A program made the translations under genes and the position numbers. Source: a virus. Taken from it: DNA of 64,000 nt. Under the pieces are notes generated by a model, which worked only from the letters and a program-made list of their open reading frames with translations, had not been told where the DNA came from and did not search any database. Location of the stretch: positions 1-64,000 of IMG/VR virus record IMGVR_UViG_3300031521_000033. One strand, 5' to 3'. This document shows, piece by piece, positions 1 through 55,687 of this stretch (positions are counted from its first letter, which is position 1; each line of letters begins with the position of its first letter).

Positions 1-50
1 TCTTCAAATCCTTCATAATGTCGTTCAGTTTGCTTAAAATCCATTGTCAT
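1..50 (-). CDS. N-terminal fragment of next head gene (capsid candidate)
   Basis: Only the first 16 codons are inside the window (begins MTMDFKQTERHYEG); the gene continues past the left edge. A strong AAGGGGG ribosome binding site lies about 10 bases before the ATG at 50. It directly follows the scaffold gene in transcription order, which in many phages is where the major capsid gene lies, so capsid is a position-based guess only. Confidence 0.6.
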   Translation of the reverse strand, partial: MTMDFKQTERHYEGFE

Positions 51-6049: not shown

Positions 6050-7243
6050 TTATAAAACTAATTTTGTTCTTGTTGTTCCAACTGTGAAATAGAAACCATC
6101 ACTTGCTTTTTCAATTGTTCCATCTAACGCTCCTGCTGCAACTGCTGCCGCCGGAAGTAATGTTGATGTTCTAATTCTTACAGGTGACATTGTAAGCGGT
6201 GATGCTCCTAGTCCGCCGTTTAAAGTAGCCGCACCGCCAACACCTGTTGATAGATACATTAATGCTACAAAAGCTATTCCACCTGTCCCTGCGACCGCTG
6301 GTGATGCTAATGTTGTAATAGGTACACTTGATAGTACAGACATACCACTTGATGTTGTAGTGAGTACTGGAGTATTTGTAGTTGTCATTGATACAAGTCC
6401 TGATACATATGCCGCTGTTCCTGCTACAACTACCTGACCAACTACTGAATCTGATGTATGTGTAAATGCTATTGCTCCACCAATTGCTAATGCAATATTA
6501 TCTGGTGCATCAACTTTAAATGATGCTCTATTAGCAATAAAACTACCTGTTGCTCCTGTAGTTGAATAAAAACAACGTGCCGATGCATTTGAATGTAGAA
6601 CACTTACATTACCATCTAATAATTGTATTTTACTTGCAGAATTTGTATTGGTCCATACAATTGCATCTCCCACGCCTGATGGGGAAACACTATTAACAAA
6701 ACTATTTATTAGTTGTAAATTAGCTGCTGCAGATCCACTAAATGATAATGTTGTTCCTGATCCTGCGGTTGCTGCATTTTGCAATACAATATTTTCACCA
6801 ATAACTGTACCTGAAAATGAAGATACATGATTACCAATAATATAAACACCATATTTAACAGGTGATGTTATATTTACTCCTGCCTTTAGTGTTATATTCT
6901 CTGTGTACATACCAGGATATACACCTATTGTATAACCACTTGAAGCAACGTCTATGGCCCTCTGTACTGTTAAATAAGGTGAACCTAAACTACCATCACC
7001 TGCCGTATCATTACCATTTTTAGAAACATATAGATAATTACTTGGTTTGATCAAACTATCAACAGCTCCTTTAAGCCACCAACCATTTCCTGTGGCCGGG
7101 TTTATATTTTTATTACTCCACACATATTCTGTTTTAGTATCTAATTCAGTAAAATTGGCCAATTCATATATCTTACCTGTAGGCTTATCATCTGAAAAAA
7201 GACCACTATAATTAAGTTTATTTATGTCATAATAAACTGCCAT
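6050..7243 (-). CDS. Beta-helix repeat structural protein (decoration or tail spike)
   Basis: About 397 aa. After a 70-residue head region comes YLYVSKNGNDTAGDGS followed by SPYLTVQRAID, the start of a right-handed parallel beta-helix of the DUF1565/pectate-lyase-like type. The remainder is a long Gly/Ala/Thr/Ser-rich repetitive beta region typical of phage fibres, spikes and capsid decorations. I chose the ATG at 7243 because AAAAGGATG precedes it; the frame opens earlier but inside the upstream terminator. The gene stands alone between RNA loci, far from any tail gene in view. It has no close promoter of its own apart from readthrough of the terminator at 7271-7301. No lyase residues can be assigned. 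Confidence 0.7.
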   Translation of the reverse strand: MAVYYDINKLNYSGLFSDDKPTGKIYELANFTELDTKTEYVWSNKNINPATGNGWWLKGAVDSLIKPSNYLYVSKNGNDTAGDGSLGSPYLTVQRAIDVASSGYTIGVYPGMYTENITLKAGVNITSPVKYGVYIIGNHVSSFSGTVIGENIVLQNAATAGSGTTLSFSGSAAANLQLINSFVNSVSPSGVGDAIVWTNTNSASKIQLLDGNVSVLHSNASARCFYSTTGATGSFIANRASFKVDAPDNIALAIGGAIAFTHTSDSVVGQVVVAGTAAYVSGLVSMTTTNTPVLTTTSSGMSVLSSVPITTLASPAVAGTGGIAFVALMYLSTGVGGAATLNGGLGASPLTMSPVRIRTSTLLPAAAVAAGALDGTIEKASDGFYFTVGTTRTKLVL

Positions 7244-7270
7244 TAACACACATCCTTTTAATTTTATATA

Positions 7271-7301
7271 AAACAAAAAGGACTAGTTTAAAAACCAGTC
7301 C
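7271..7301 (-). terminator. Intrinsic terminator of the 720-nt RNA
   Basis: On the minus strand a 9-bp stem, GGACTGGTT (7301-7293) with AACTAGTCC (7288-7280) including one G-T pair, and a 4-base loop, is followed by TTTTTGTTT. It lies 28 bases before the beta-helix start codon, so it either ends the RNA or acts as an attenuator for that gene. Confidence 0.85.
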
Positions 7302-7993
7302 AAAATATAATGATGCTTTTTCCAATCTCCACAACCATCCCCCAATATTACCATAGTAATCAAGTTTGAAAAGCATCTGAAAAATGGTTGCTTCCGTTTG
7401 CAAACGTTATTTTATTTAACATAAACCTAAATGGTTAAACCAACTGCTAATACAGCCTCACAAATGTTATAAAATGGACAATAGTTAACAGTATTTTTCT
7501 AATATGCTCAATTACATAACATTTTCTCTTCTCACATATTAAGGTGTTTCATGTTAATACGATTTTGGTAGGATTCGTAACCTCTAATACTAGTACTTGC
7601 TCACAAGTGAATGATATTCTAAATTAAAGCCCCGTCATTCCCGGAGGCTGATATTATTATTTGTTGTGGTGATCATCCACATTCATTCAATTCCTATTTT
7701 TACAGGTTGGAGTTCCTGACTTTGTTTATTCGCTTATGGCTGTTAGTTTTCAGTATTTTATTGGGTTCAACTAGTGAACTTCCCCTCATTTAACTGTACA
7801 TACAAGTATTACAGCACCACTCACTTATTTGCCTCGCTCTTTCGGGTGCGATATCCCAACTTCTTGGAAATGGGTTTAACGTCTCCATTCCGACCATGTA
7901 TGCATACAAGTTATAGGATAATCATTCTCAAAATATTTTAGCATTAAAACTTATCCCATAAAGTGGGAATCTTTTTTGTTTCTTTTATCCTAT
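7272..7993 (-). ncRNA. Large (~720-nt) structured non-coding RNA, own promoter and terminator
   Basis: There is no credible reading frame on either strand. A perfect promoter (8000-8028) places the 5' end near 7993 and the intrinsic terminator places the 3' end near 7272. The 5' end folds back: a 9-bp stem pairs 7985-7993 with 7913-7921 around a TCCCA/TGGGA hairpin (7964-7968 with 7954-7958). Further hairpins include GTTCA/TGAAC (7775-7779, 7765-7769) and the palindrome CGTTTGCAAACG (7395-7406). A 9-bp 3' stem (7369-7377 with 7312-7320) encloses ATTAC/GTAAT (7356-7360, 7347-7351). Size, phage origin and a nearby tRNA resemble GOLLD (~800 nt) or ROOL (~600 nt) RNAs, but I cannot match a consensus by eye. 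Confidence 0.75.
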
Positions 7994-7999
7994 ATTATT

Positions 8000-8028
8000 A
8001 TTATAACATACTTTTACCTTTTTGTCAA
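8000..8028 (-). promoter_or_regulatory. Promoter of the 720-nt RNA
   Basis: Minus-strand TTGACA (8028-8023), 17 bases, TATAAT (8005-8000), extended -10 TGT. Exact consensus, and no reading frame follows, which argues strongly that the product is RNA. Confidence 0.9.
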
Positions 8029-8059
8029 TAGATTTATATAATATATTTAATATAATATT

Positions 8060-8591
8060 TGCAAAGGTTATATCAACTTGGTTGCAAGCTGTTTAAGTAC
8101 TATTTTTTATATACTTTAGGGAATGTGAGTACTTGATATATAGAAAAATCCCTAGCATTTAGTAAAAATTAGTCCAATTTATAAATTAATAAAAATTGAA
8201 ATAGTTTAACTAAATGTTAGAGGATTTTTCTATATTGATAAATTTCTTTAGTGAAAAGCTCGCACCTATCAATAGTTCTGTTTTTACAGAGCCAGACTAT
8301 TACTTAAGAACACTCAATGCCCGTGTTCATAATAGCCATCCCACATATGCATAATAATACACATACGTCACTGACCACCCTTGCCGAATTATATTGCCGC
8401 AATCGCAATCATACTGTAAGTATTATAAATAATTAACAGGTCCGTTACATTAGGATCACTGTTTACATCTATAATATATATCTTATAGCAAAGCACATTT
8501 ACAGATTAAGGCTGTGCGGACCATGACCAATTTCTTGTATATCAGAAATTTAAGATCTTATTATATAACGGTTAATATTAAATTTTATCTT
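8060..8591 (-). ncRNA. Second structured non-coding RNA (~530 nt)
   Basis: Gene-free stretch starting 7 bases after a promoter -10 at 8598-8603. Supported pairings on the minus strand: an 8-bp stem (8330-8337 with 8295-8302) enclosing a 6-bp hairpin GAACAC/GTGTTC (8323-8328, 8308-8313); a tetraloop hairpin CTGT/ACAG at 8278-8289; a long-range GGTCC/GGACC stem (8518-8522 with 8439-8443) closing a region that includes a 5-bp GCACA/TGTGC hairpin; and a 20-bp imperfect stem (8210-8231 with 8142-8162). The 3' end is not defined; I set it before the next promoter. It resembles the neighbouring large RNA in setting but not obviously in sequence. Confidence 0.6.
8142..8231. repeat. Long inverted repeat, 21-22-base arms
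   Basis: Arms 8142-8162 and 8210-8231 pair with one bulge and one mismatch around a 47-base A+T-rich loop. Each arm contains a run of five A/T. It probably forms the 3' domain of the second structured RNA and may serve as its 3' boundary. Confidence 0.7.
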
Positions 8592-8597
8592 ATCTAC

Positions 8598-8626
8598 AGT
8601 ATACCACACTTTAACATATTTGTCAA
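8598..8626 (-). promoter_or_regulatory. Promoter of the second structured RNA
   Basis: Minus-strand TTGACA (8626-8621), 17 bases, TATACT (8603-8598). No reading frame with a ribosome site follows within 500 bases. Confidence 0.85.
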
Positions 8627-8710
8627 GTGTTTTTTATTATTTATTTTAAATTATTTTTAACTACCTTATTTATATTATAACACAACTAAAGTTAAAAGTA
8701 AATATTTTTA

Positions 8711-8739
8711 TTTACATATTACATAAAGTATGCTATAAT
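8711..8739 (+). promoter_or_regulatory. Promoter of the plus-strand gene module
   Basis: TTTACA (8711-8716), 17 bases, TATAAT (8734-8739). It diverges from the minus-strand promoter at 8598-8626 and leads into a long leader and the first plus-strand gene. Confidence 0.82.
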
Positions 8740-17820: not shown

Positions 17821-17824
17821 TATA

Positions 17825-17851
17825 AGCATCCTACGGGGTGCTTTTATTTTT
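17825..17851 (+). terminator. Intrinsic terminator of the plus-strand module
   Basis: 7-bp stem AGCATCC (17825-17831) with GGGTGCT (17836-17842), loop TACG, then TTTTATTTTT. Confidence 0.85.
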
Positions 17852-18070
17852 GCCCAAATGACATTCATGGTCCATTTAAAATTTATACAGAGATTATATT
17901 AAAATGGATTTTAGATTAATGCCCCTAGGACTCCACAGGTTGAGTTATAATATACAATGCATATACTTATATACCTTACCATACAAAGTATCAACACGGG
18001 TGATTGTGAAGGGTAAGTTGTTATAATATCATTTGCCCGGGAGTATTAATGTGGCAGTTTTATAATATGG

Positions 18071-18164
18071 TAACAAGGCTGCAAAGTTGGAAGGCATTAC
18101 AGTAAGACATTTGGGAATAAGATAACAAGTTTTAAAAGTTGGAACGGTACACAGTAAGACATTT
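18071..18164. repeat. Two imperfect 42-base direct repeats
   Basis: Units 18071-18112 and 18123-18164 both start TAACAAG, share AAAGTTGGAA in the middle and end ACAGTAAGACATTT, with divergent bases between. The period is 52 bases. The layout resembles initiator-protein iterons or a duplicated RNA element. Confidence 0.7.
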
Positions 18165-18319
18165 ATTGAAATTATAAAATTTTGTGATACACCCCGCATA
18201 CGTTTAAACTGAAAAAAGATTAAGGGTACGCCCCCCTACCATTATACCATGGACTGTTGCAGCCTGTCAAGAAGAATGTTTATACAGTTTGATGAATAAT
18301 AATGCACGTTGGCAAATAT

Positions 18320-18340
18320 CCGATAAATACTCATTATCGG
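18320..18340. repeat. Hairpin CCGATAA/TTATCGG
   Basis: 7-bp perfect arms with a 7-base loop. Neither strand has a U-run directly after it, so it is not a simple terminator. Confidence 0.55.
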
Positions 18341-18546
18341 AAAAAAGTACACCAATCCTTTTGAATATAGGGGTTTGAAGGTTTTAAAACTGCATTTGCC
18401 TACGCTTTGCCAACGCATTTGGATTACTGAATTTATGCATGCATATTTGGGGGGAAAAAGTTAGTCATGTTTTGATACCCTATAGAATTACTCTTGATTT
18501 TATACTGCATTTTCAATAGGACTGATACAGGCATACAATATATTAA

Positions 18547-18560
18547 CCTATATAAGTATA
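18547..18560. repeat. Recurring element CCTATATAAGTATA
   Basis: Identical to 8766-8779; inverted near-copies lie at 17955-17975 and 20584-20604, which share CAATGCATATACTT. All sit at module boundaries outside genes. Confidence 0.5.
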
Positions 18561-18885
18561 AAGGCATAGTAATAAAGTACGCTTAAAACACATTCTACGA
18601 GGTCATATTTACAGTTGATCCTAATATAATCTAATGAATTGCTGTTGCAGTCCTGTCGTTGTATACAACTCTTGCAATGTCCATCATACAAACACACAAC
18701 TGCATCAATATATTCCATATTATGTTAATTTAGTTGAATAATAGCTATTTTATAGGGTGCAATATATGCCTTTTACCTCATATCATAAACAATTCAGTCA
18801 ATTGTGTCCTATGCATACACACATTGCATGATCTAAATTGCTATTGGAGTGTTGCAAGTTGCCGTGTAGGCGTGTGTCAATCCCG

Positions 18886-18961
18886 CTTTTGCAATCATTT
18901 TTTGTAATTTGTGTATCTTTTAATACTATATTGACACCTTTTGCAATCATTTTTTTTGTAA
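18886..18961. repeat. Tandem repeat with T-runs
   Basis: CTTTTGCAATCATTTTTT followed by TGTAA occurs at 18886-18907 and, with two extra T, at 18938-18961. Possibly part of an unwinding region. Confidence 0.55.
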
Positions 18962-19481
18962 AATGTTTATACAATTGATAATATTATAATGCATTTGTAC
19001 TACAATCATGTAATTGTTGGTGTAATTACTCTGTAATGCAACATACTAACTCAATCTATCTATATAATCATACTAATATACCTATTATCCTTTACTTGTT
19101 ATATTCCTTATACTGTGATATAATTATAATGATAGTATTCTTATACTTAGTATTTATAAAGAACATTATACTTATTACAACTCTTATTCATACTCTTAAT
19201 ACAATGGGTTCTTATTCTCGCTCGGCTACCCTATATAAAGCCTTATATTCACTCTGCACGTCCATACTACAACTACCCTTATACTTATACCAATTCATAT
19301 ATTACTTTCTTTATATCAGCAGCCGGACTGTACAACATCAATACAATAGATAGTAATAATCTTATTTGCATATTTTACTTATTTGATTATATTCCTAATT
19401 AATAATATTCTTAATTAGTTTTATTATTATAAAGTTATATTATCAACTTGTTATATTATTATTATTATTTAAAAATGGGCA

Positions 19482-19512
19482 AAGAAAAAGCCTTACCATT
19501 TACTGATAAGAC
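19482..19512 (-). terminator. Terminator of the minus-strand gene set
   Basis: Minus-strand stem GTCTTA (19512-19507) with TAAGGC (19495-19490), then TTTTTCTTT. It lies just after the last minus-strand gene. Confidence 0.75.
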
Positions 19513-19522
19513 TTGATCTATT

Positions 19523-41970: not shown

Positions 41971-44900
41971 TTAATCCTCTTTTTTCAACTCTATTAATTT
42001 TCCACCTTCATCAAAAGTGTATTCTTGACCATACCATACGAAGCTATATACTGCATCACAGATCAATTGAGCTTTTAAATCATTACCAGCACTTACCATG
42101 CATTCCTCTAATATCTTACCAACTTCTTGTGCATGCTCAACTGGGCATTCCATAATAATTTCATCATAAATCTGTAATAACATATGTGCATCTAATTCTT
42201 TTAACCGCCGATCTCCAGCTATTGTCCTATTGTATACTGCAATCATAGCCTTTTTTGTTAAATCTGCTGCTGTACCCTGAATCGGCGAGTTGAAACTTTG
42301 ACGTGTTGCCTGTGCAATAAACCCACCATTTTGTCTAATATTAACATGCTTTGTTCTTGCTTGCCTAATAATTTCATCTTTTTCTTTGTATGATCTTGTT
42401 TGGCTTAATGCTGTTAAATATGATGCTTTAATCTCATCTGATACATTTTCACCAAATTCAAAATCAGGTAATTGAATATCAGGAAGTCTACGTTTTCTTC
42501 CAAAAAATGTTTCTACATATCCGTTTAGTTTTGCACTAATTACAACATTTTCTAAATATCTTGAAAGTTCAGGATAAGCTCTTAAAACTGCATCTTGTAT
42601 TTCTTGTGCCTTTTTATTATCAACATGTAATTCTTCTGCAATTGCCGGTATTCCTTTTCCATAGATGATGCCAAGGCAAACTTTTTTGGCTTTGTTTCTT
42701 CTGTCCTTGCCTTCTTTATATGTTGTCCCATCTGCATTCTTTTCAACACATTCTTCATACTTAAATCCAAATGCAATACTTGCTACTGCTGAATAAATGT
42801 CCTTCTTATCTGCAAATGCCTTTAACATTTTATGATCATCTGCAATTGATGCAACTGCCATCATTTCCTGTTGCGAAAAATCACACCCTACAAATATCAT
42901 TCCATCTGTTGCTTTAAACATTGTTCTAATTTCTTCATTGTGACTTGGAATATTACTCAGATTTGGTTTTTTACATGTAAACCTTCCTGTATTATGACAT
43001 ATAACAGAATTAGCTATAAAGCTGTGCGTATTTGGCACATGAAAATCATATACATCATTTGTTCCAGTCTCAATTTTTGTAACTGGTAAATAAATATAGT
43101 TACAATACTGTAATGGTTTATCCATTTTATTAGTTGACATTGCACATGCCTTTTTTGTTTCAATCACCCCTACTTCCGTTATAAATGTATTGTAGCTAAA
43201 CCTTGATATTGTTATTCTATTATATTTATATTCGTGATATTTACTGTCAGTTCTGTTTATAGCAGATAGTATACCATAATTTAGTAAAGACCCCTGTATA
43301 AATTTAGCCGTTACATCATCTGTTATACTTAATTTTAATCTGTTCCCACATAAAGAGCTATCAAGTGTACACCCCTTAATAAATGCCTTTATAACACTCC
43401 ATGGGGACATTCTAATTTCTTTACATACTTTTTTATTCCTTGCCCCATGTTTAATATAATCATCAAACCATGAAATACCTTTGCTAGATACATATGTTTC
43501 CATTGTTGTATTTGCCTTTATAGTTTTACCATTTATACCGAATACACTGTTAAATAAGTATTTAACCCTGTTAATTACATCAGGATCATCATTTGATATT
43601 CTTATAGTATATGATCCATTTGATGTTCTTATACTACCATCTGCATTGTACACACCAAGTAATTCTGCTAATTCTTCTGTCATCACACCTGGTTTACTTT
43701 TTGGTATTACTTTACTTCGTGTGGTGGGAATATATGATGATTTTGAAAGGTTTACATAGTTAGCTGGGAACTTTTTAAACCCAAATGGTATTTCAACCAA
43801 ATCACCAATTGTTAGATCCTTTAGTAGTCTGAACTTTCCGGTTGTATACAACTTCTTGTCATAATTTATTCCTCGGTTAGTATGTCTATTAGCTAGTGTA
43901 TACCCCGACACTCTAATAGGATGATGGGGCGTTCCCTCAATTGTAATTCCCATTCTTGTAGTTATTTTAATCGTATCTATACTACTAAATTTTATAACCT
44001 TTGATGCTACTTCATACTCACAATCCTTATTCACAATTATAGTGTCCGTTGATTTAAAGGTATTATCCTCCACATTGCCAACTATATCCGATATTTCCTC
44101 ATACCCCTTAGAGGTAATTACTAGACTTTCCCCCGTAATGCAGTCAGCACCTACCGTATTGTAATTACCATGTATTCGTCCGTCACCTGCTTTAGCATTT
44201 TCAATTAGTGGATCTATATATGTTCCAATTAATTTGCTAATTCCTCTAATATTTAAAATAGCCTTTGCAATTGGTATTTCTGGTATTGTTTCTAATACTT
44301 CCACACCCGTTGGTCTTGTCATTTTCTTTGTCTTTTTATCCCGGACTGGCTTTAATACTTTAAGAACATCATAAAACATTGTAGCCAATTGCTGTGGGCT
44401 TGCTGGATTTGGTGGATATTCAATATTGTTGTGCTTTGTCTGGCATTGATACATTTTAATTTCTGGTTCTAATTCCGCGCAGCATCTTAAATATTCTTCA
44501 TGGTATTTCTTACCAATATTATCATATTTAATCTTTAATTCATATGCCCTTGCTAAGTCTAATTCTATCCCTCTGTCCATCATTTCTGCTGTTGGTGTTA
44601 ATACTGGTATTTCAATATTATAGAATATATCACAAACCCTGTCCAGCTTTTGTTTAATACATTCTGGTGTTCCCTTTGTAAGATATGGAAGTTGAAATCC
44701 AAATAATTCAAATGTCATTTCAGCATCATGTGCCGCGTATGGATAGCCTGTTTCAATTGGTAACATTGGAAATGGGATACCATCAAATAATTCGCCAAAC
44801 TTGAATATGTCTGCTTTACCATTTAATATATATTTGTTATGTAAAAATTTTAACCCATGTTCATCTTCATTTTCATTTAACAATCTCGATGCAATATATG

Positions 44901-45438
44901 TATCCCAATAACATGGTAAAATAACTCCTACTTGATGTTTAATTACTCTTCTATCAAACATGTAATTATGCCAAATAATTTTAATATTTAAATCAACAAT
45001 CATTTGCATAGCCTTTTTTATATCTTTAATAGATATTTGATTATCTACTTTTGCTCCTGTAATATATGATACATGATTTATTGGAATATAGCAAGCAACT
45101 TGTGAAGGTGAATATAAACTTATTCCTGCAATAACATCTTTGAATACATCTAATCCGCTTGTTTCTGTATCCATTGCGATTATTTCATCTTTTGTCGCTC
45201 TATCTATATATTCAAATAATTCATTTGCATCTCTAATTACATAATACTTTGCTTTATACTCCGCAAGACTGCTTTCTACCATAGCTTTAATTCCGGCTAT
45301 CTTATCAATTAGTGAATTTCCACCCTTTAGTCTTACCTTTGCACCCATACTCTCAATATCTGACGTCTTGCTTAATAGTAAAGAATCCCTACTCGAACTA
45401 TTGGCTCTTGTAGGGATCTTAACACTAAATAGACTCAA
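41971..45438 (-). CDS. Family A DNA polymerase with 3'-5' exonuclease and an intein
   Basis: 1155 aa precursor; 771 aa after removal of the intein (residues 433-816). The exonuclease has MDTET at 89-93, WHNYMFDRR and YAAHDAEMTFELF. The polymerase has TGRFTCKKPNLSNIP directly after the intein, motif A VGCDFSQQEM, motif B KVCLGIIYGKGI and motif C QIYDEIIMECP. The usual motif A and C residues are slightly changed (Q-Q-E-M; Y-D-E), but the catalytic Asp residues remain. It is the main replicative polymerase candidate. The TTG start has only a weak ribosome site; a later start would shorten the N-terminus only. Confidence 0.93.
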   Translation of the reverse strand: MSLFSVKIPTRANSSSRDSLLLSKTSDIESMGAKVRLKGGNSLIDKIAGIKAMVESSLAEYKAKYYVIRDANELFEYIDRATKDEIIAMDTETSGLDVFKDVIAGISLYSPSQVACYIPINHVSYITGAKVDNQISIKDIKKAMQMIVDLNIKIIWHNYMFDRRVIKHQVGVILPCYWDTYIASRLLNENEDEHGLKFLHNKYILNGKADIFKFGELFDGIPFPMLPIETGYPYAAHDAEMTFELFGFQLPYLTKGTPECIKQKLDRVCDIFYNIEIPVLTPTAEMMDRGIELDLARAYELKIKYDNIGKKYHEEYLRCCAELEPEIKMYQCQTKHNNIEYPPNPASPQQLATMFYDVLKVLKPVRDKKTKKMTRPTGVEVLETIPEIPIAKAILNIRGISKLIGTYIDPLIENAKAGDGRIHGNYNTVGADCITGESLVITSKGYEEISDIVGNVEDNTFKSTDTIIVNKDCEYEVASKVIKFSSIDTIKITTRMGITIEGTPHHPIRVSGYTLANRHTNRGINYDKKLYTTGKFRLLKDLTIGDLVEIPFGFKKFPANYVNLSKSSYIPTTRSKVIPKSKPGVMTEELAELLGVYNADGSIRTSNGSYTIRISNDDPDVINRVKYLFNSVFGINGKTIKANTTMETYVSSKGISWFDDYIKHGARNKKVCKEIRMSPWSVIKAFIKGCTLDSSLCGNRLKLSITDDVTAKFIQGSLLNYGILSAINRTDSKYHEYKYNRITISRFSYNTFITEVGVIETKKACAMSTNKMDKPLQYCNYIYLPVTKIETGTNDVYDFHVPNTHSFIANSVICHNTGRFTCKKPNLSNIPSHNEEIRTMFKATDGMIFVGCDFSQQEMMAVASIADDHKMLKAFADKKDIYSAVASIAFGFKYEECVEKNADGTTYKEGKDRRNKAKKVCLGIIYGKGIPAIAEELHVDNKKAQEIQDAVLRAYPELSRYLENVVISAKLNGYVETFFGRKRRLPDIQLPDFEFGENVSDEIKASYLTALSQTRSYKEKDEIIRQARTKHVNIRQNGGFIAQATRQSFNSPIQGTAADLTKKAMIAVYNRTIAGDRRLKELDAHMLLQIYDEIIMECPVEHAQEVGKILEECMVSAGNDLKAQLICDAVYSFVWYGQEYTFDEGGKLIELKKED
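42991..44142 (-). other. Intein in DNA polymerase with DOD homing endonuclease
   Basis: 384 residues from Cys433 (CITGESLVI) to Asn816 (SVICHN), followed by Thr. Block B is GTPHHP; block F/G is VYDFHVPNTHSFIANSVICHN-like with the His-Asn end. LLGVYNADGS and FIKGCTLDSS are the two LAGLIDADG motifs. Insertion is exactly before the conserved TGR motif of the polymerase, so splicing is needed for activity. Confidence 0.92.
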
Positions 45439-54058: not shown

Positions 54059-55687
54059 TCACCTAAAATCGTCAAATAATATTGGAATACTTTCTTGGCA
54101 TTGCCCTAACAGATCCTTTGCAATAATCTGCATATCTGGATGTGCATGCGAATCGGTTCTTAGTTTAAAGAAATGTTGCCACTCTCTTACATTGCCTGTT
54201 ACAAATATTTCCGTTGCTAAACATGTTGGTAATACTGATCTTGCAATATCTGTACTCATTCCGCTTTCCAATAATTCCATATATGCATTTTCTGACTGTC
54301 TCATTGCAAATTCCCATGCTTTATTTGCAAGATACAAGTTTAAATCCTGTGCTACATCTGAATCTTCTGGTGACTTTAATCCTGATGGTTTAATAACTGT
54401 AATCTCACTTCCAAATTTACCTTTTGAATAATTACAATATCTTGTGCTGCTCTGTGCAAATGAGAATAGTCTGTGCCTTACAATTTCATGTGAAATGCCA
54501 CGATCACACACAATATCTGCTGAAAATACGGCATGTTCAATCATTGCACAATTTCCGCATAAAGATGGTATTTTGTTTTTACCCCTAACAATAATTATAC
54601 CAGTGGATACTTGTACACAATAAACTGGCAGGTTATCTACATTAATTATTACTACTTTACTATCTGGTTTCCGCGTGTCATTTACAATTATAGAATTATT
54701 GGCTTTTATTCTTACTCTATAAAGTGGTTTCCAATGAATATTGTCTAGTTTAGTCACATCCCCTATATATAAAGTATATCCTGCTAAACTACCATGATTA
54801 ACTAACCACTCAGCAACATAAGAAGAAGTTGTTCCTATATTTTTGCTCCAATTAGACTTGTTACCATCAGCATTGAATAATCCCTTAATGATCGATTTAA
54901 TTTTAATTGGGTCCTCCATATGTGGTAAGAATTTCTCTTTATCCCTTACATACCTACTATTAAATTCATTACCAATATTTTTCATAGTCAAAGTTATTCT
55001 GTTACCTTTTTTAATGCTATAGATAATTCCTAAATTGGTGGCTAAATTAATCAGATAATCTATTTTACGTTTCTTTTTTAAATGAAATTCTAATCTATTC
55101 CCATTCAGACGACTACCGTCTCCTATCCAAAATCCCACTAATTCCCACCAACAATCTATATCTTCCGGTATTCTACAGGCTGTAGGTGTATAGAACTTTC
55201 GTTCACCATTCGTTAATTTATTCCCATTATCTTGTTTATATTCAATCTCATCATTTTTAAATAATTTGTAGTTATAATTTGTTGCGTCACTAGAGATACT
55301 TCTAACTGTTCCAAACATATTATGACCTGCTGTTGTCATATAACCCAATGAACCAGAATAGTCATACATCTTACCAGTATAATTGTAACCTATCAGATTA
55401 TTTGGCATTTCAAACCCATTAAATGACCCATTTTGATTAACTGTTGCAACCTTATACTGTCCTTTATAGTCACTAAATTTAATAAATCCCTGCTCAGTCA
55501 GTATCTCTGTATCTCCATCATAACAGTGTCCGCTTTTAATTAATCCTCTGACCATCTTTTCAGCACTGCCCTCTTGAATCTTATCTTCTGATTTATAACA
55601 AAGTCTTGCTGCACGTTCAATCTTTTCTAACATTTCCTTACCACTCATATCCAGTAATAACTTTGCTGACGGTTCAATAATATTCAT
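54059..55687 (-). CDS. thyX: Flavin-dependent thymidylate synthase ThyX with an intein
   Basis: 542 aa precursor; 217 aa after removal of residues 55-379, the normal ThyX size. The ThyX signature RHRLFSFAQSSTRY follows GISHEIV; N-terminal AARLCYKSEDKI and C-terminal ECRxWxHFF-like REWQHFFKLR, then LRTDSHAHPD, complete the enzyme. It makes dTMP from dUMP with FAD and methylenetetrahydrofolate. It works with the NrdD/NrdG genes next to it in dNTP supply. Confidence 0.95.
   Translation of the reverse strand: MNIIEPSAKLLLDMSGKEMLEKIERAARLCYKSEDKIQEGSAEKMVRGLIKSGHCYDGDTEILTEQGFIKFSDYKGQYKVATVNQNGSFNGFEMPNNLIGYNYTGKMYDYSGSLGYMTTAGHNMFGTVRSISSDATNYNYKLFKNDEIEYKQDNGNKLTNGERKFYTPTACRIPEDIDCWWELVGFWIGDGSRLNGNRLEFHLKKKRKIDYLINLATNLGIIYSIKKGNRITLTMKNIGNEFNSRYVRDKEKFLPHMEDPIKIKSIIKGLFNADGNKSNWSKNIGTTSSYVAEWLVNHGSLAGYTLYIGDVTKLDNIHWKPLYRVRIKANNSIIVNDTRKPDSKVVIINVDNLPVYCVQVSTGIIIVRGKNKIPSLCGNCAMIEHAVFSADIVCDRGISHEIVRHRLFSFAQSSTRYCNYSKGKFGSEITVIKPSGLKSPEDSDVAQDLNLYLANKAWEFAMRQSENAYMELLESGMSTDIARSVLPTCLATEIFVTGNVREWQHFFKLRTDSHAHPDMQIIAKDLLGQCQESIPILFDDFR
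54551..55525 (-). other. Intein in ThyX with DOD homing endonuclease
   Basis: 325 residues from Cys55 (CYDGDTEILT) to Asn379 (SLCGN), followed by Cys. Block B TTAGHN; endonuclease motifs LVGFWIGDGS and IIKGLFNADGN. The penultimate residue is Gly, not the usual His, and block F (VYCVQVSTGIII) is unusual. Insertion is in the N-terminal third of ThyX after IKSGH. Confidence 0.9.

What the first reader, a model, noticed from the sequence alone, without database searches (positions are those of the whole stretch)
7272..7993. Promoter-driven ~720-nt structured non-coding RNA in a phage RNA locus
A perfect TTGACA-17-TATAAT promoter leads into 720 bases with no credible gene and many nested inverted repeats, and the transcript ends at a strong intrinsic terminator. 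The 5' end folds back by a 9-bp stem (7985-7993 with 7913-7921) and the 3' end forms a 9-bp stem (7369-7377 with 7312-7320) around a hairpin. From established knowledge, phages carry GOLLD and ROOL RNAs of this size next to tRNAs; a tRNA lies 1.4 kb away. Whether this is one of those or a new class is inference only.
Basis: partly seen in the sequence, partly recalled or inferred. Interest (0 to 1): 0.92.

Follow-up and report, generated by a model that had tools for sequence, protein, structure and literature searches.

The report
Phage RNA carrying stolen antitoxin pseudoknot
A bacterial virus carries, between a strong promoter and a terminator, a roughly 720-letter non-coding RNA that contains an intact copy of the RNA antidote to a bacterial suicide toxin without the toxin gene, so it probably disarms that defence during infection.

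Summary
The locus is real: a perfect sigma-70-type promoter (8028-8000, minus strand), about 722 nt with no credible gene, and a strong terminator (7301-7272). It is not recognisable as GOLLD or ROOL; Rfam finds neither, although the same search finds ROOL in a related kind of phage locus. Overall folding is no better than shuffled sequence. The informative part is modular.

Bases 7649-7601 (-) form an H-type pseudoknot homologous to the RNA antitoxin of a TenpIN/CptIN-like type III toxin-antitoxin family. A model built only from toxin-linked antitoxins scores it 62.4 bits. Covariation across 30 copies is decisive. In 399 bacterial genomes the element occurs in five, each time upstream of the toxin. 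The window's 94-kb phage record has no detectable toxin, and about 17 other viral loci also carry toxin-less copies, including Enterococcus phages whose host species carries the toxin on plasmids.

A second pseudoknot (7897-7861) recurs in about 45 viral contigs and sits beside the first in two other phages. A third segment (7598-7556) is shared with one 181-kb phage.

Best reading: an antitoxin decoy, like phage PhiTE's pseudo-ToxI, inside a longer RNA that may carry several such modules. Decoy function is inferred, not shown.

The parts
8000..8028 (-). Perfect sigma-70-type promoter TTGACA-N17-TATAAT with extended -10 TG; start of RNA expected near 7993
   Evidence: 10 perfect sites in the window vs 0.28 expected
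7272..7993 (-). RNA1: predicted ~722-nt non-coding transcript
   Evidence: promoter and terminator, no SD-led ORF; no Rfam family
7861..7897 (-). Module B: H-type pseudoknot, stem 1 GUC/GAC, stem 2 GGAAUGG/CCAU(U)UCC with a bulge
   Evidence: 46 IMG/VR stretches match the motif, including the window's own two contigs, one probable coding match and some near-identical contigs; covariation 29 double-change cells vs 10.4 shuffled, 0/500; model R3 52.4 bits, window included in the build
7834..7859 (-). Predicted pseudoknot UUGGG|AUA|UCGC|A|CCCGA|AAGA|GCGA, no homologue found
   Evidence: geometry only; pattern search gave no structural match
7601..7649 (-). Module A: TenpI/CptI-like type III antitoxin pseudoknot AGCCUC|CGG|GAAUGA|C|GGGGCU|UUAAUUUAGAAUA|UCAUUC
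   Evidence: 62.4 bits with model R2 built only from toxin-linked antitoxins; pseudoknot covariation; specificity in bacterial genomes
7556..7598 (-). Module E: segment shared with a 181-kb phage (L229:2501-2543, 84% over 43 nt); possible pseudoknot AGG/CCU + UACGA/UCGUA
   Evidence: 0 of 300 shuffles reach its score, highest shuffle 45.7 vs 47.3 bits
7312..7377 (-). 3' hairpin domain closed by the 9-bp stem GAUGCUUUU/AAAAGCAUC
   Evidence: predicted fold; no homologue
7272..7301 (-). Intrinsic terminator
6050..7243 (-). Gene directly behind the terminator: phage tail protein (PHROG 4577), not a toxin

Best explanation
RNA1 is a phage non-coding RNA that delivers an orphan type III antitoxin. 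It is transcribed from a strong host-type promoter and stops at an intrinsic terminator. Its module A folds into the same H-type pseudoknot as the antitoxin repeats of a TenpIN/CptIN-like toxin family. In those systems the toxin, an RNA-cutting enzyme, is held inactive by the pseudoknot and is freed when the antitoxin runs out during infection, stopping phage production. By supplying the pseudoknot itself the phage would keep the toxin bound, as escape mutants of phage PhiTE do with pseudo-ToxI. Module B, which recurs in many phages and lies beside A in two other phages, and module E may be decoys for other RNA-controlled toxins. Shown here: homology and structure of A, absence of a detectable toxin gene, recurrence of B. 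Inferred: transcription, toxin binding, benefit to the phage, and the function of B and E.
For: (1) blastn hit to E. faecalis conjugative plasmids and Vipetofemvirus phages outside annotated genes. In the plasmid, three tandem copies precede a terminator and a 158-aa gene that matches the TenpIN toxin model, E 1.3e-11, the layout of type III systems (PMC5086642). (2) Nine further neighbour proteins of the element all match TenpIN, E 4e-7 to 1e-13; the only plausible PDB relative is CptN (4rmo), weak at E 0.02. (3) Covariation: 95% of cells paired, 75 double-change cells vs 23.6 shuffled, 0/500. (4) Model R2, without window or orphan copies, scores the window 62.4 bits. (5) In 399 bacterial genomes the RNA model hits five, all among the seven with the toxin. 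(6) No TenpN in the window's 94-kb record, five other orphan-bearing phage records, a 14-kb fragment, or Vipetofem. About 17 other viral loci are toxin-less near the element. (7) The Enterococcus phage copy is 91% identical over 58 nt to the plasmid antitoxin of the same host species. (8) A single CptI repeat is fully antitoxic (PMC4627078); PhiTE sets the precedent (PMC3475682). (9) Toxin-less loci also hold abiF RNA, an RNA antitoxin of AbiF, with no Abi_2 protein in that phage (PMC12373285), or a DUF3800-VIII RNA.
Against: No transcript or infection data. The host is unknown, so a matching toxin in it is not shown. The nine toxins and the 158-aa protein score below NCBIfam's curated TenpIN cut-off of 90 bits; a single-sequence AlphaFold model of one toxin was too poor to use. 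Only one full copy of A is present, whereas PhiTE needed several repeats. Apart from A, B and E, the RNA has no homologue and no excess structure. B has no known partner protein.
Confidence: 0.7

Rival explanations
1. Decayed toxin-antitoxin locus: the phage once carried a whole type III system and lost the toxin; the pseudoknot is a remnant without present function.
For: Some phages do carry complete systems with the same element (L011, L017, L022, L027, L185), and one has a toxin reading frame broken by a stop (L018/L092).
Against: The window copy is intact in both stems and in the conserved loop and 3' tail. Toxin-less copies occur in many different phages, often as one copy in gene-free stretches with tRNAs or other RNA families. 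No toxin remnant lies behind the terminator, where a tail gene sits.
Confidence: 0.15
2. A large ornate RNA of ROOL/GOLLD kind, or a new class of it, in which the pseudoknots are structural parts of an RNA machine.
For: Right size, gene-free, near tRNAs, 5' and 3' closing stems. A ROOL RNA and module B occur in one phage contig (L216).
Against: No ROOL/GOLLD match. Folding energy like shuffled sequence. Modules A and B occur separately in other contexts, A as free antitoxin repeats beside toxins.
Confidence: 0.08
3. Leader or attenuator of the late operon: a long untranslated leader whose terminator gates the tail and packaging genes behind it.
For: The terminator lies about 30 nt before the tail gene start on the same strand, and no perfect promoter lies between.
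Against: tRNAs and the small terminase gene have their own perfect promoters further down (6043, 5593). Explains neither the antitoxin homology nor module B. Not exclusive with the decoy role: type III operons themselves read through such a terminator.
Confidence: 0.1

Closest known systems
TenpIN / CptIN type III toxin-antitoxin systems
   Same: Module A is homologous to their antitoxin pseudoknot as found here next to TenpIN-model toxins; promoter, RNA, terminator order
   Different: No toxin gene in the 94-kb record, a single full copy instead of tandem repeats, embedded in a ~720-nt RNA, terminator followed by a tail gene
Pseudo-ToxI of Pectobacterium phage PhiTE (PMC3475682)
   Same: Phage RNA that resembles a type III antitoxin; proposed mechanism identical
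   Different: PhiTE mimics ToxI of the ToxIN family and becomes active only after repeat expansion in escape mutants; here the family is TenpIN/CptIN-like, the copy is intact in the natural phage, and it lies in a longer multi-module RNA
RNA anti-CRISPRs (Racr, PMC10651486)
   Same: Solitary virus-borne copy of a defence system's own RNA element acting as decoy
   Different: Different defence system; resemblance of principle only
GOLLD and ROOL RNAs (Rfam RF01998, RF03087; PMC12286853)
   Same: Size class, phage location, tRNA neighbourhood
   Different: No covariance-model match, no shared sequence or structure found
abiF RNA (Rfam RF03085; RCd22, PMC12373285)
   Same: RNA antitoxin that occurs toxin-less in another phage (L023) next to module A
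   Different: Not found in RNA1

Membership tests
Type III antitoxin RNA element (TenpI/CptI-like, as defined by the toxin-linked copies found here) | H-type pseudoknot with conserved core and both stems | tested here: met
Type III antitoxin RNA element (TenpI/CptI-like, as defined by the toxin-linked copies found here) | Binds and inactivates a cognate endoribonuclease toxin | not testable with these tools
   needs a toxicity rescue assay
Complete type III toxin-antitoxin locus | Toxin gene (TenpN/CptN/ToxN) directly behind the terminator | tested here: not met
   TenpIN and ToxN searches of the 94-kb record negative (the ToxN search had no positive control; CptIN was not searched separately); gene behind the terminator is a tail protein
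Complete type III toxin-antitoxin locus | Tandem antitoxin repeats | tested here: not met
   one copy only in window and record
Phage antitoxin mimic (PhiTE pseudo-ToxI kind) | Antitoxin-like RNA in a phage without the toxin | tested here: met
Phage antitoxin mimic (PhiTE pseudo-ToxI kind) | Cognate toxin present in hosts of the phage | tested here: inconclusive
   host of this phage unknown; met at species level for the Enterococcus Vipetofemvirus copy
Phage antitoxin mimic (PhiTE pseudo-ToxI kind) | Expressed in infection and suppresses the defence | not testable with these tools
   no transcript or infection data
ROOL RNA (RF03087) | Match to the family covariance model | tested here: not met
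   positive control L216 at 255.8 bits
GOLLD RNA (RF01998) | Match to the family covariance model | tested here: not met

The most novel reading that the evidence does not exclude
RNA1 belongs to a widespread, undescribed class of phage RNA loci built from interchangeable decoy modules: each pseudoknot copies the RNA part of a different RNA-controlled defence or toxin-antitoxin system, so one non-coding transcript blocks several defences at once. Module B would then point to an unrecognised type III-like system.
Probability: 0.35. Interest if true: 0.92.

Novelty: new variant of a known kind. Interest (0 to 1): 0.76.

Why it matters
Phage RNA that mimics a type III antitoxin was known to me only from PhiTE, as a laboratory escape trait. 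Here an intact antitoxin pseudoknot of another toxin family sits toxin-less in a natural phage, and similar copies recur in many large phages beside tRNAs and other RNA families linked to toxins (abiF, DUF3800). If the decoy function holds, unexplained gene-free regions of large phages become a place to look for RNA counter-defence, and the matched pairs (phage element, host plasmid toxin) make it directly testable. It also gives module B, a covarying phage pseudoknot without a name in Rfam, as a lead to an unknown target.

Tried and rejected
GOLLD/ROOL or any Rfam family in RNA1: none. Global RNA fold stability: no excess. RNA1 as a continuous array of eight or nine pseudoknots: a scan with settings tried after reading the sequence gave 1 of 100 shuffles as high, but with settings fixed from antitoxin geometry the flanks of module A are ordinary (516 of 1000 shuffles as high; 5' half alone 16 of 1000), so the claim is dropped. 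RNA2 (promoter 8626-8598) as a pseudoknot array: not above shuffles. Homologues of the 7859-7834 pseudoknot: pattern hits lack the second stem; the 23-nt exact match in L070 lies in a 258-codon stop-free frame. Window segment 7681-7649 as relative of the skipping-rope element: the shared module in L014/L019 is skipping-rope and not clearly in the window. Bacterial partner of module B: of the hits inspected in 399 genomes only L235, a tandem B pair with promoter and terminator, looks genuine, and no intact gene of at least 70 codons follows on its strand. Whole-RNA homologues: only identical contigs in IMG/VR. AlphaFold of a toxin from one sequence: pLDDT 39.8, not used.

Full report
What is there. 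On the minus strand a perfect TTGACA-17-TATAAT promoter (8028-8000) is followed by about 722 nt without a credible gene and a 9-bp intrinsic terminator (7301-7272). Ten perfect promoters occur in the window, all on the minus strand, against 0.28 expected, so this is a real promoter class of the phage. The tRNA pair 1.4 kb away has its own copy (6043) and the small terminase gene another (5593). The RNA as a whole does not fold better than shuffled sequence.

Not ROOL or GOLLD. Neither the gathering-level scan of the window nor a relaxed scan of 7100-8720 gives either family. The models work on this kind of material: phage contig L216 has a 255.8-bit ROOL.

The first lead. The only sequence relatives of the whole RNA are identical contigs. 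A sensitive blastn found a 47-nt stretch, 83% identical, in conjugative plasmids of Enterococcus faecalis and in Vipetofemvirus phages. In the plasmid (L007) three tandem copies are followed by a terminator and a 158-aa gene. That protein matches the TenpIN type III toxin model (E 1.3e-11) and, more weakly, CptIN. This is the operon order of type III systems (PMC5086642).

Module A is that antitoxin. A motif scan of IMG/VR found 21 stretches, 20 of which carry the full pseudoknot. Thirty aligned copies give stem 1 at 90% and stem 2 at 100% paired cells, with 75 double-change cells against 23.6 in shuffles. Copies were collected partly by stem-2 pairing, so stem 2's 100% is partly by selection; stem 1 was not used for selection. 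A model made only from 17 toxin-linked copies scores the window copy 62.4 bits, second highest of the toxin-less copies. A separate search of 399 bacterial genomes found the toxin in seven and the RNA in five, all five among those seven; the five had contributed to the RNA model, so this shows specificity rather than an independent recovery. Nine further neighbour proteins all match TenpIN, all below its curated cut-off, so they are a related subfamily rather than textbook TenpN. Against the PDB their profile finds CptN only weakly, E 0.02.

Module A is an orphan here. The 94-kb record of the window has no TenpN or ToxN match, nor have five other phage records with the element (36 to 162 kb), a 14-kb fragment, or phage vipetofem; the ToxN search had no positive control and CptIN was not searched separately. 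Among viral contigs six carry element and toxin together, and about 17 loci besides the window carry the element with no toxin in the DNA held, though some are fragments. In vipetofem, a phage of E. faecalis, the element is 91% identical over 58 nt to the antitoxin on E. faecalis plasmids: the toxin and the toxin-less antitoxin occur in the same host species.

Company of the orphans. Toxin-less loci often sit with tRNAs and with other RNA families: abiF RNA in L023, itself an RNA antitoxin (PMC12373285), with no Abi_2 protein in that phage; DUF3800-VIII in L119 and drum in L174; skipping-rope in L019.

Module B. Reading those loci showed that window 7897-7861 recurs in L119 and L137/L135 beside module A. 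A pattern scan found it in 46 IMG/VR stretches, nearly all intergenic and several in tandem; the count includes the window's own contigs (L002, L005), a probable coding match (L218) and some near-identical contigs. In 399 bacterial genomes the exact pattern hit once, inside a coding repeat; the covariance model gave one genuine-looking locus, L235, where two copies lie between a promoter and a terminator without an intact gene behind them. It forms an H-type pseudoknot with covariation (29 double-change cells against 10.4). Several B loci hold DUF3800-XI RNA (L208, L232), a sub-threshold abiF RNA (L217) or ROOL (L216). Its target is unknown.

Module E. Window 7598-7556 matches L229, a 181-kb phage, over 43 nt at 84%; no shuffle of RNA1's remaining segments reached that score in 300, the best being close (45.7 against 47.3 bits). 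L229 holds B and E in the same order, about 370 nt apart, in a 1.5-kb gene-free stretch with a tRNA. One relative only, so this module is tentative.

How it most likely works. Shown by sequence: promoter, terminator, intact antitoxin pseudoknot, no detectable toxin, shared module B. Known for relatives: type III toxins are endoribonucleases held by such pseudoknots and act against phages (PMC5086642); one CptI repeat suffices for antitoxicity (PMC4627078); PhiTE escape mutants expressing pseudo-ToxI defeat ToxIN (PMC3475682). Inferred: RNA1 is made early from a host-type promoter, its module A occupies TenpN-like toxin and prevents abortive infection, and B and E may do the same against other systems.

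Novelty. The principle is known from PhiTE; nothing in nine literature searches described toxin-less TenpI/CptI-type antitoxins in natural phages or multi-module loci of this kind, though most subscription papers are not in the library. I rate it a new variant of a known kind, with the multi-decoy reading as an open, more novel case.

Noticed in passing
8598-8137, minus strand: Second candidate non-coding RNA: near-perfect promoter TTGACA-17-TATACT at 8626-8598 and a long inverted repeat at 8138-8235; no Rfam match and no pseudoknot excess.
   Followed up: partly
17821-19522: 1.7-kb stretch between convergent gene blocks with no convincing gene and one perfect promoter at 18270 (18-nt spacer, minus strand); possible further RNA locus. 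Models of modules A and B find nothing there.
   Followed up: partly
whole window, minus strand: Ten perfect TTGACA-16..18-TATAAT promoters, all on the minus strand, against 0.28 expected in both strands of shuffled sequence.
   Followed up: yes
41971-45438 and 54059-55687, minus strand: DNA polymerase A-like and ThyX-like genes each appear, from the reading frame, to contain an intein-like insertion (C-x-x-G-D/E-S/T...HN or GN junctions). Not tested with models.
   Followed up: no
L216:75-721: ROOL RNA (255.8 bits) in a 129.5-kb phage contig that also has module B and many tRNAs.
   Followed up: partly
L023:699-747 and 977-1013: Toxin-less TenpI-like element and abiF RNA 230 nt apart in a 162-kb phage without an Abi_2 protein.
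   Followed up: partly
L235 (G001, Clostridia MAG): Tandem module B pair with promoter and terminator in a bacterial contig, stem 1 swapped to GAC/GUC in the first copy, followed by no intact gene of 70 codons or more on that strand; possible trace of the cognate system of module B.
   Followed up: partly
L018/L092, G407 (141-kb phage): Phage with three antitoxin copies, a TenpN-like toxin frame broken by a stop codon, and a second toxin match over the TenpIN cut-off about 1.5 kb further on.
   Followed up: no
L013 and L028: Another shared element (AUCGG...CCGAUUAAUAAA, 76% over 50 nt) in toxin-less loci of two phages, possibly a further pseudoknot module.
   Followed up: no
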